From: Nitrospirota bacterium
GTDB lineage: Bacteria > NPL-UPA2 > JAADIA01
Direction of reading: 5' to 3'
Assembly: GCA_013151555.1 (NCBI GenBank)
Contig: JAADIA010000052.1
Coordinates: forward strand, 1-21,310
DNA: 21,310 nt
The notes below the pieces were generated by a model. That model had not been told where the DNA came from. It searched no databases and saw nothing but the letters and a program-made list of their open reading frames with translations. Shown in pieces: positions 1-892 of this stretch; position 1 is the first letter of the stretch, and every line of letters begins with the position of its first letter. The position numbers and the translations under genes were made by a program.

Positions 1-105
1 TAAATCTGTATTCTGTTCTCTGTCTTCTGACTTCTGTCTCTAACCACCGTCCCAAACCCTCTCGACACCAACTTCCCAATCCCCCAGTAATCAGGTATTT
101 CAAAA
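1..105. other. Non-coding flank of the CRISPR relic, TCTG-rich at its outer end
   Basis: No gene is visible here. Positions 1-40 are a low-complexity TCTG/TTCTG run that resembles the short dispersed repeats of some uncultivated bacterial genomes (recalled from memory, not checked). Positions 67-105 lie just past the intact CRISPR repeat and could be a spacer, though 39 nt is slightly long for type I-C. Positions 36-66 read on the minus strand as a possible decayed terminal repeat: it starts with GTCG, and its last 12 bases match GTGGATTGAAAC at 9 positions, but its middle does not match. Confidence 0.4.
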
Positions 106-137
106 GTTTCAATCCACGCCCCCGCGTAGGGAGCGAC
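106..137 (-). CRISPR. Solitary type I-C-like CRISPR repeat
   Basis: On the minus strand this 32-bp unit begins GTCGCTCCCTACGCG and ends GGGGGCGTGGATTGAAAC. It has the short CCC..GCGGGG inverted repeat and the GTGGATTGAAAC 3' end that mark type I-C repeats. Only one intact copy is present; the next ~35-nt step on either side does not give a second good copy. Its first base directly follows cas3 coding sequence, so there is no leader and no array. Its orientation equals that of the cas3 fragment, as expected for a type I-C locus. It is most simply the last surviving repeat of a deleted array. Confidence 0.85.
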
Positions 138-308
138 TGGCTTTTCCAATATCATGCAAAAGACCAATCAGCTCACCTTGTTCTTGCAGTCCAATCTTCG
201 AAGCAAACTTACCAGTTTTTTTCGAAACTTCATCAAGATGCTCAGTCAGATATTGAATTACTCCATCTTTTTTTTGCTATGAGCAATATAATCAGTGTGT
301 TTAAACAT
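138..308 (-). pseudogene. cas3: cas3 5' fragment (HD nuclease domain), truncated and frameshifted
   Basis: Reading from ATG at 308 gives MFKHTDYIAHSK. After one compensating base in the 8-nt A run (268-275 on the plus strand) it continues through QYLTEHLDEVSKK, FASKIGL and GELIGLLHDIGKAS. The AH, EHL and HDIGK motifs are the opening of the Cas3 HD nuclease domain, which degrades DNA in type I CRISPR interference. Without the correction, a TAG stop follows the A run. Coding stops after about 57 codons, where a CRISPR repeat begins; full Cas3 proteins are roughly 700-900 residues, so the helicase is entirely gone. Reading on into the repeat reaches TGA within ten codons. No other cas gene occurs in the window. 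The identification rests on motif order and on the adjoining repeat, which support each other. Confidence 0.82.
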
Positions 309-375: not shown

Positions 376-892
376 TCCTACCGGTAAATTTTTTGCATTT
401 TTTTGATTTCTTCTTTTATTTCTTTTTTGAGAGCAGCAGGGGAAATGACTTCTACATCAGCGCCGAATTTCAGGATTTCTCTTTTAATCTCCCGGAAATC
501 GGATACAGGAATTGTCAGAGTTAACCGGCCCTTCTTATCTATCTTTGTTTTTTGACTCTTGTGCCAGACCTGTTCTTTAACCCAGCGGGAAGTTTGCGGA
601 GAAAAACTCAAGGTTACTTTATATCTTTCCTTACCGGAAAATATCCCGAAGTTTTGCCTGATAAATTGCTTGATTCGTAAGTCTTTCTTTAAATGGTTCT
701 CTTTGTTTCAACCTCTTTATAAGGGAAATAATAATTTATCCGGAGGGAGCGGCTGGAGATAAGGGCGTTTATTATTTTTTCAAAAACCGTTTCATTTACA
801 TTATAATACTCGATATTTTTAAGAGATATTTTATCGCTTAATTGGTTTATATGGAACCAGAAAAATCTTTCGTAAGAAAGTTTTCCGCTCAT
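376..892 (-). pseudogene. Degraded WYL-domain transcriptional regulator next to cas3
   Basis: Two remnants of one regulator lie in different frames. From ATG at 892 the protein starts SYERFFWFHINQ, typical of the N-terminus of YafY-like WYL regulators. It jumps to VFEKIINALISSRSLRINY, the entry to the WYL domain, with the winged-helix region missing. That frame stops at 689-691 just after KRTI. The second frame, open from about 698, carries RQNFGIFSGKERYKVTLSF and WVKEQVWHKSQ, and ends DFREIKREILKFGADVEV...YR, the normal WYL C-terminus. The core between these parts, about 40 residues including the expected ligand-binding strands, is absent. WYL proteins are known neighbours and regulators of CRISPR-Cas loci; this gene lies directly upstream of the cas3 remnant in the same direction. 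It is not expected to make a functional regulator. Confidence 0.75.

What the first reader, a model, noticed from the sequence alone, without database searches (positions are those of the whole stretch)
106..308. A type I-C CRISPR-Cas locus reduced to one repeat fused to the cas3 start
The minus strand runs from a cas3 ATG (308) through the HD motifs to GKAS, then straight into GTCGCTCCC...GTGGATTGAAAC with no gap. Both parts have the orientation expected of a type I-C locus, in which cas3 is first and the array last. One deletion between the cas3 HD region and a distal repeat would remove the helicase, all other cas genes, the leader and the spacers. It is a rare snapshot of complete loss with a readable breakpoint; AGT or GTC shared by cas3 codons and the repeat start could have been microhomology.
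Basis: partly seen in the sequence, partly recalled or inferred. Interest (0 to 1): 0.78.

Follow-up and report, generated by a model that had tools for sequence, protein, structure and literature searches.

The report
Scar of a lost CRISPR-Cas system
A bacterium has lost a whole type I-C CRISPR immune system, and what remains is the broken start of the cas3 gene joined directly to one leftover CRISPR repeat; such scars are a known way these systems are lost, and relatives of this one suggest that cas3 starts are often left behind when one CRISPR system is lost or replaced.

Summary
On the minus strand, 308-138 encodes the first ~58 codons of a type I-C Cas3, with a frameshift in an A8 run. 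It runs, at a join ambiguous by up to 3 bp (GTC, 137-135), into one complete 32-bp I-C repeat (137-106). Closest relatives are I-C loci in metagenome-assembled genomes (76% aa, 81% nt), where cas3 continues past this point and the array lies 7-10 kb away. The genome holds no other copy of the repeat, no other Cas3 N-terminus and no Cas1. A WYL-regulator pseudogene (892-378), a family found just upstream of cas3 in other loci, probably belongs to the remnant. Best reading: a deletion from cas3 to the leader-side edge of a repeat, plus array collapse. The same anatomy is published for type I-E Salmonella (23 distinct cas deletions), and a second I-C case is in Ca. Brocadia. Caveats: the scar lies 105 bp from a contig end, and no intact locus at this site was found. 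Unexpectedly, 18 related loci carry short cas3 5' stubs directly upstream of another, intact cas3, apparently layers of successive takeovers; that is the more surprising lead.

The parts
138..308 (-). 5' remnant of a type I-C cas3 (about 58 codons, through HDIGKAS), frameshifted in an A8 run (+ strand 268-275)
   Evidence: PADLOC Cas3c 7e-13; NCBIfam cas3_HD 2e-8; 76% aa and 81% nt to L042 cas3
106..137 (-). one complete 32-bp type I-C CRISPR repeat, the only copy in the genome
   Evidence: 88-94% to repeats of intact I-C arrays; no other copy
135..137 (-). GTC that can belong to either side of the join (possible microhomology)
   Evidence: BLAST matches to relatives' cas3 reach this point and repeat matches start at it; 8 of 15 relatives have GTC here
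378..892 (-). pseudogene of a WYL/WCX regulator (broken frames; the N-terminal HTH part is mostly missing)
   Evidence: Pfam WCX 9.4e-18 on 378-611, weak WYL match (0.009) on 689-892; similar WYL regulators stand just upstream of a cas3 start in L111, L115 and L185
1..105 (.). far flank: no second repeat at spacer distance; 5-44 is a dispersed simple repeat at the contig end
   Evidence: no significant repeat match above shuffles; other copies of 5-44 in the genome

Best explanation
This is a dead scar of a type I-C CRISPR-Cas locus. The ancestor carried, on the minus strand, probably a WYL regulator, then cas3 and the other I-C genes, then the leader and array. A deletion of several kilobases (cas3 start to array is 7-10 kb in close relatives) joined cas3 codon ~58 to the 5' (leader-side) edge of a repeat, removing the rest of cas3, the other cas genes and the leader. 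The array is down to one repeat, either through the same deletion or through recombination between repeats, which leaves one intact copy. The leftovers then decayed (frameshift in cas3, broken WYL gene). Shown: the two halves, their identity, the join, and the absence from the assembly of Cas1, of another Cas3 N-terminus and of other repeat copies. Inferred: the ancestral gene order (from relatives), that this was a deletion rather than another rearrangement, and the order of events. No function is proposed: nothing here can make a Cas protein or be processed by one.
For: cas3 homology stops and repeat homology starts at the same 3 bases. In close relatives cas3 runs on for about 820 codons and repeats start 7.4-9.9 kb after the cas3 start on the same strand, where the contig reaches the array. 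No Cas1 in the genome, one Cas3 N-terminus, one repeat. The cas3 stub is frameshifted and the neighbouring WYL gene is broken. Same anatomy in 23 Salmonella I-E deletions (PMC3356390) and in Ca. Brocadia L054.
Against: The scar lies 105 bp from the end of a contig of a draft assembly, so an assembly error or a continuing array beyond base 1 is not excluded. No intact ancestor at this site was found. cas genes other than cas1 and cas3 were not searched for in the genome.
Confidence: 0.88

Rival explanations
1. The join was made by the adaptation machinery: a broken 3' end in cas3 was joined by Cas1-Cas2 to the leader-repeat junction as if it were a prespacer end, deleting the leader and the cas operon, so that the boundary falls exactly at the leader-side edge of the repeat. 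(This refines the best explanation; it does not exclude it.)
For: The join is at the first base of the repeat within a 3-bp ambiguity, roughly 6% by chance for a 66-bp repeat unit (own reckoning). In Salmonella I-E all type A deletions share one array-side coordinate and all type F deletions another, described for the sequenced genomes as the end of the last repeat of CRISPR1, while the cas3 end varies (PMC3356390). That Cas1-Cas2 attacks the leader-repeat junction is established knowledge.
Against: A 2-3 bp microhomology explains the window's join without it. The Brocadia join lies 4 bases inside the repeat. The two truncated E. coli cas3 loci examined are IS1-associated instead. Whether the surviving repeat was the leader-proximal one cannot be told. 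I know of no experiment showing such a reaction.
Confidence: 0.25
2. The stub was left earlier, when an incoming CRISPR operon displaced the resident one (as seen in many relatives), and the newer operon was lost later, bringing the old stub next to a repeat.
For: 18 related loci carry Cas3 N-terminal stubs directly upstream of a longer cas3, ending at profile positions 34-104, median 57; the window's stub ends in the same narrow zone, about 5% if breaks were uniform along cas3.
Against: No trace of a second cas3 or of its start between the stub and the repeat; the direct join at GTC needs no intermediate.
Confidence: 0.15
3. Assembly artefact: an assembler joined a cas3 start to a repeat from another place at the contig end.
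For: Contig end 105 bp away, next to a dispersed simple repeat.
Against: The join has only 2-3 bp of shared sequence, far too little for a k-mer or overlap join; the repeat has no other copy in the assembly; the neighbouring sequence is decayed, as expected of a real remnant.
Confidence: 0.07

Closest known systems
cas-operon deletions of Salmonella type I-E (deltaA1-A12, deltaF1-F12; Fabre et al. 2012, PMC3356390)
   Same: All cas genes gone except a 5' remnant of cas3, joined at the edge of a CRISPR repeat; the cas3 break varies, the repeat edge is fixed.
   Different: Type I-E instead of I-C; a normal array usually remains there, whereas here a single repeat is left; the locus here is older and decayed.
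Ca. Brocadia sp. AMX1 WYAU01000095.1 (L054), found here
   Same: Truncated I-C cas3 fused directly to a repeat on the same strand; no cas genes follow within the contig.
   Different: Break at about codon 278; the first 4 bases of the repeat are lost; a 33-nt spacer and 7 bases of a second repeat follow; another Cas3 stub lies upstream.
Degraded cas loci of Escherichia, Shigella and Salmonella (PMC2886076)
   Same: Loss that leaves only a cas3 pseudogene, with few repeats.
   Different: Type I-E; part of those losses is associated with IS elements.
Intact type I-C loci L042-L059
   Same: Same cas3 lineage (up to 76% aa), same repeat family and the same orientation of cas3 and array.
   Different: Full-length cas3 and further cas genes, which the window lacks.

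Membership tests
Type I-C CRISPR-Cas locus (as ancestor) | Cas3 of the I-C lineage | tested here: met
   PADLOC Cas3c best, 7e-13, ahead of Cas3b and Cas3g; nearest loci have an I-C layout
Type I-C CRISPR-Cas locus (as ancestor) | I-C type 32-bp repeat on the same strand as cas3 | tested here: met
   88-94% to repeats of arrays downstream of I-C cas3
Type I-C CRISPR-Cas locus (as a working system) | cas1 present | tested here: not met
   no Cas1 in the genome, with positive controls
Type I-C CRISPR-Cas locus (as a working system) | cas5, cas8c, cas7, cas4, cas2 present | not tested
   none in the window next to the scar by position; the rest of the genome was not searched for them
Type I-C CRISPR-Cas locus (as a working system) | array of at least two repeats with a spacer | tested here: not met
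   one repeat only; sequence beyond the contig end is unknown
cas-deletion scar (5' cas3 remnant joined to a repeat) | cas3 5' remnant in direct contact with a repeat | tested here: met
cas-deletion scar (5' cas3 remnant joined to a repeat) | boundary at the leader-side edge of a repeat | tested here: met
   join at the first base of the repeat within a 3-bp ambiguity; whether it was the leader-proximal repeat cannot be told
cas-deletion scar (5' cas3 remnant joined to a repeat) | intact locus at the same site in a relative | tested here: inconclusive
   the one close PtsI ortholog has other neighbours and no CRISPR; no closer genome is held

The most novel reading that the evidence does not exclude
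CRISPR loci are deleted and replaced by a recurrent process: cas deletions end at the leader-repeat junction because the adaptation integrase joins a broken chromosomal end there, and takeovers repeatedly cut the resident cas3 within its first ~70 codons, leaving stackable stubs that record earlier systems.
Probability: 0.2. Interest if true: 0.75.

Novelty: new member of a known kind. Interest (0 to 1): 0.45.

Why it matters
It adds a type I-C case, with a second one in Brocadia, to cas-loss scars known from type I-E, so that the repeat-edge boundary becomes a question that can be tested across subtypes. The cas3 stubs found in relatives could order successive CRISPR takeovers at one locus, a process usually inferred only from conflicts between trees.

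Tried and rejected
Degenerate second repeat in 1-105: not above shuffles. Non-Cas HD protein: weaker than Cas3. Intact locus at the same site in relatives: not available. Spacers of the fetched arrays aimed at the cas3 5' region: 272 spacers, no convincing match. Stub as a conserved small gene that travels with the downstream cas3: several stub lineages stand before several cas3 lineages, and pairwise identities do not correlate (r 0.03 over 8 loci), so not favoured, though not excluded. E. coli K-12-type cas3: the two 5'-remnant loci examined are IS1-associated; the other partial matches were not read. Plasmid and viral-contig searches gave nothing useful. Remains of a displaced operon downstream of arrays in relatives: none recognised among the ORFs listed. 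Papers on cas3 stubs upstream of an intact cas3: none found with the terms tried, which is no proof that none exists.

Full report
Observation. The window is a complete contig (G000:C6, 21,310 bp) of a 1.81-Mb, 99-contig draft genome, 93.7% complete. On the minus strand, the ATG at 308 opens MFKHTDYIAHSKKK; the frame is lost in a run of eight A (+ strand 268-275) and the reading continues in another frame as KDGVIQYLTEHLDEVSKKTGKFASKIGLQEQGELIGLLHDIGKAS; at 137 the sequence becomes GTCGCTCCCTACGCGGGGGCGTGGATTGAAAC, ending at 106. The joined peptide matches Cas3c (PADLOC 7e-13), cas3_HD (2e-8) and, only weakly, solved Cas3 chains (8zns 0.03, 8g9u 0.12), better than RNase Y or generic HD. The repeat has no second copy in the genome at up to 3 mismatches.

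Relatives. A scan of GTDB genomes returned 61 related loci. The closest cas3 genes are in draft genomes labelled Planctomycetes, Scalindua, Nitrospirae, Deltaproteobacteria and Omnitrophota (up to 76% aa). DNA similarity to L042 is 81% from window 320 down to 136 and stops at the join, while repeats of several arrays match from 137 on. In relatives the gene continues for about 820 codons, and where the contig reaches the array, repeats start 7.4-9.9 kb after the cas3 start on the same strand in these close relatives. The bases of relatives at the join agree with the repeat start for 3 nt in 8 of 15 cases, 2 nt in 2 (the closest relative L042 among them) and 1 nt in 5, so the microhomology is probably 2-3 bp. 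By simple reckoning a random join shares 3 or more bases about 5% of the time: plausible, not proven.

Surroundings. No Cas1 and no other Cas3 N-terminus of this kind were found in the genome; other cas genes were not searched for. Upstream of the stub, 892-378 minus, is a WYL/WCX regulator pseudogene (WCX 9e-18) in broken frames. WYL regulators stand just before a cas3 start in L111, L115 and L185, and L059 has a WYL N-terminal piece about 1 kb upstream, so this pseudogene is probably part of the remnant. The far side, 105-1, has no second repeat at spacer distance and ends in a dispersed simple repeat where the contig breaks. The ptsI neighbour (942-2663) has a 64% ortholog in G006, whose own neighbour is a MATE-like transporter, with no CRISPR in the stretch read. 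A test at the same site was therefore not possible.

Explanation. The simplest account is a deletion between cas3 codon ~58 and the leader-side edge of a repeat, with the array reduced to one repeat by the same event or by recombination between repeats, followed by decay. The anatomy has a direct precedent: Fabre et al. 2012 (PMC3356390, Table 3) list 23 distinct deletions of the Salmonella I-E cas operon. All type A deletions share one boundary coordinate and all type F deletions another; [quoted passage not shown] the other end varies within cas3 and leaves a 5' remnant. The discussion of that paper gives no mechanism. A 2010 study of Escherichia and Salmonella (PMC2886076) describes losses that leave only a cas3 pseudogene. 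A second I-C case is L054 (Ca. Brocadia sp. AMX1): cas3 is cut at about codon 278 and runs into a repeat that lacks its first 4 bases, followed by a 33-nt spacer and the 7 bases GTCGCTC. A repeat-edge boundary would be natural if the adaptation integrase, which attacks the leader-repeat junction, joined a broken chromosomal end there. I rate this at 0.25: one exact edge is weak evidence, and the Brocadia case is off by 4 bases.

What else turned up. In 18 distinct loci (L042, L043, L044, L045, L047, L048, L050, L052, L054, L059, L077, L172, L173, L204, L210, L211, L212, L220) a 5' stub of another Cas3 lies just upstream of a longer, mostly full-length cas3. The stub matches end at profile positions 34-104 (median 57), and L042 has an additional stub of about 22 residues, against cas3 genes of roughly 750-830 codons. 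L042 carries two successive stubs, and in L220 the second of these layers is still a full-length cas3; the DNA between the layers is nearly identical in the two loci. This reads as successive takeovers of one locus. Pairwise identities of the stubs do not track those of the downstream cas3 (r 0.03, 8 loci), which speaks for residents being cut rather than for a stub that travels with the newcomer. Why the breaks cluster in the first ~70 codons is unexplained: selection on expression, a functional leader peptide and a mechanism of exchange are all open. The uniform-break probability treats the loci as independent, which they are not fully, and takes 800 codons as the length. The window's own stub ends in the same zone.

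Verdict. Taken alone the finding is a new member of a known kind of scar. The recurrent cas3 stubs are the part worth following.

Noticed in passing
L042 3059-3560; L043 9826-10001; also L044, L045, L047, L048, L050, L052, L054, L059, L077, L172, L173, L204, L210, L211, L212, L220: A short 5' stub of one Cas3 lineage lies directly upstream of a longer cas3 of another lineage in 18 loci; stub ends cluster around codon 57; L042 has two stubs in a row and L220 still has the middle layer intact.
   Followed up: partly
L054 7101-8006: Ca. Brocadia: cas3 cut at about codon 278 and fused to a single I-C repeat, followed by one 33-nt spacer and 7 bases of a second repeat: a second scar of the window's kind.
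   Followed up: yes
window 5-44 and many places in G000: A dispersed simple repeat (units like GACAGAAGTCAGAA) occurs between genes across the genome and coincides with the contig end.
   Followed up: partly
L049 9497-9828: An ORF6N-like gene appears to be cut off at the start of an I-C cas3, so the left border of the incoming operon seems to lie just upstream of the cas3 start codon.
   Followed up: no
L172 9585-10088 and L173 1-338: A small ORF (LIPPHGGYRELQSYxMAEIV..., resembling four-helix-bundle proteins) stands directly after cas7 in two loci of different genomes.
   Followed up: no
L071 9947-10300; L175 1498-1700: Two further cas3 5' stubs of about 76 and 50 codons are followed by what look like mobile-element sequences instead of a second cas3.
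   Followed up: no
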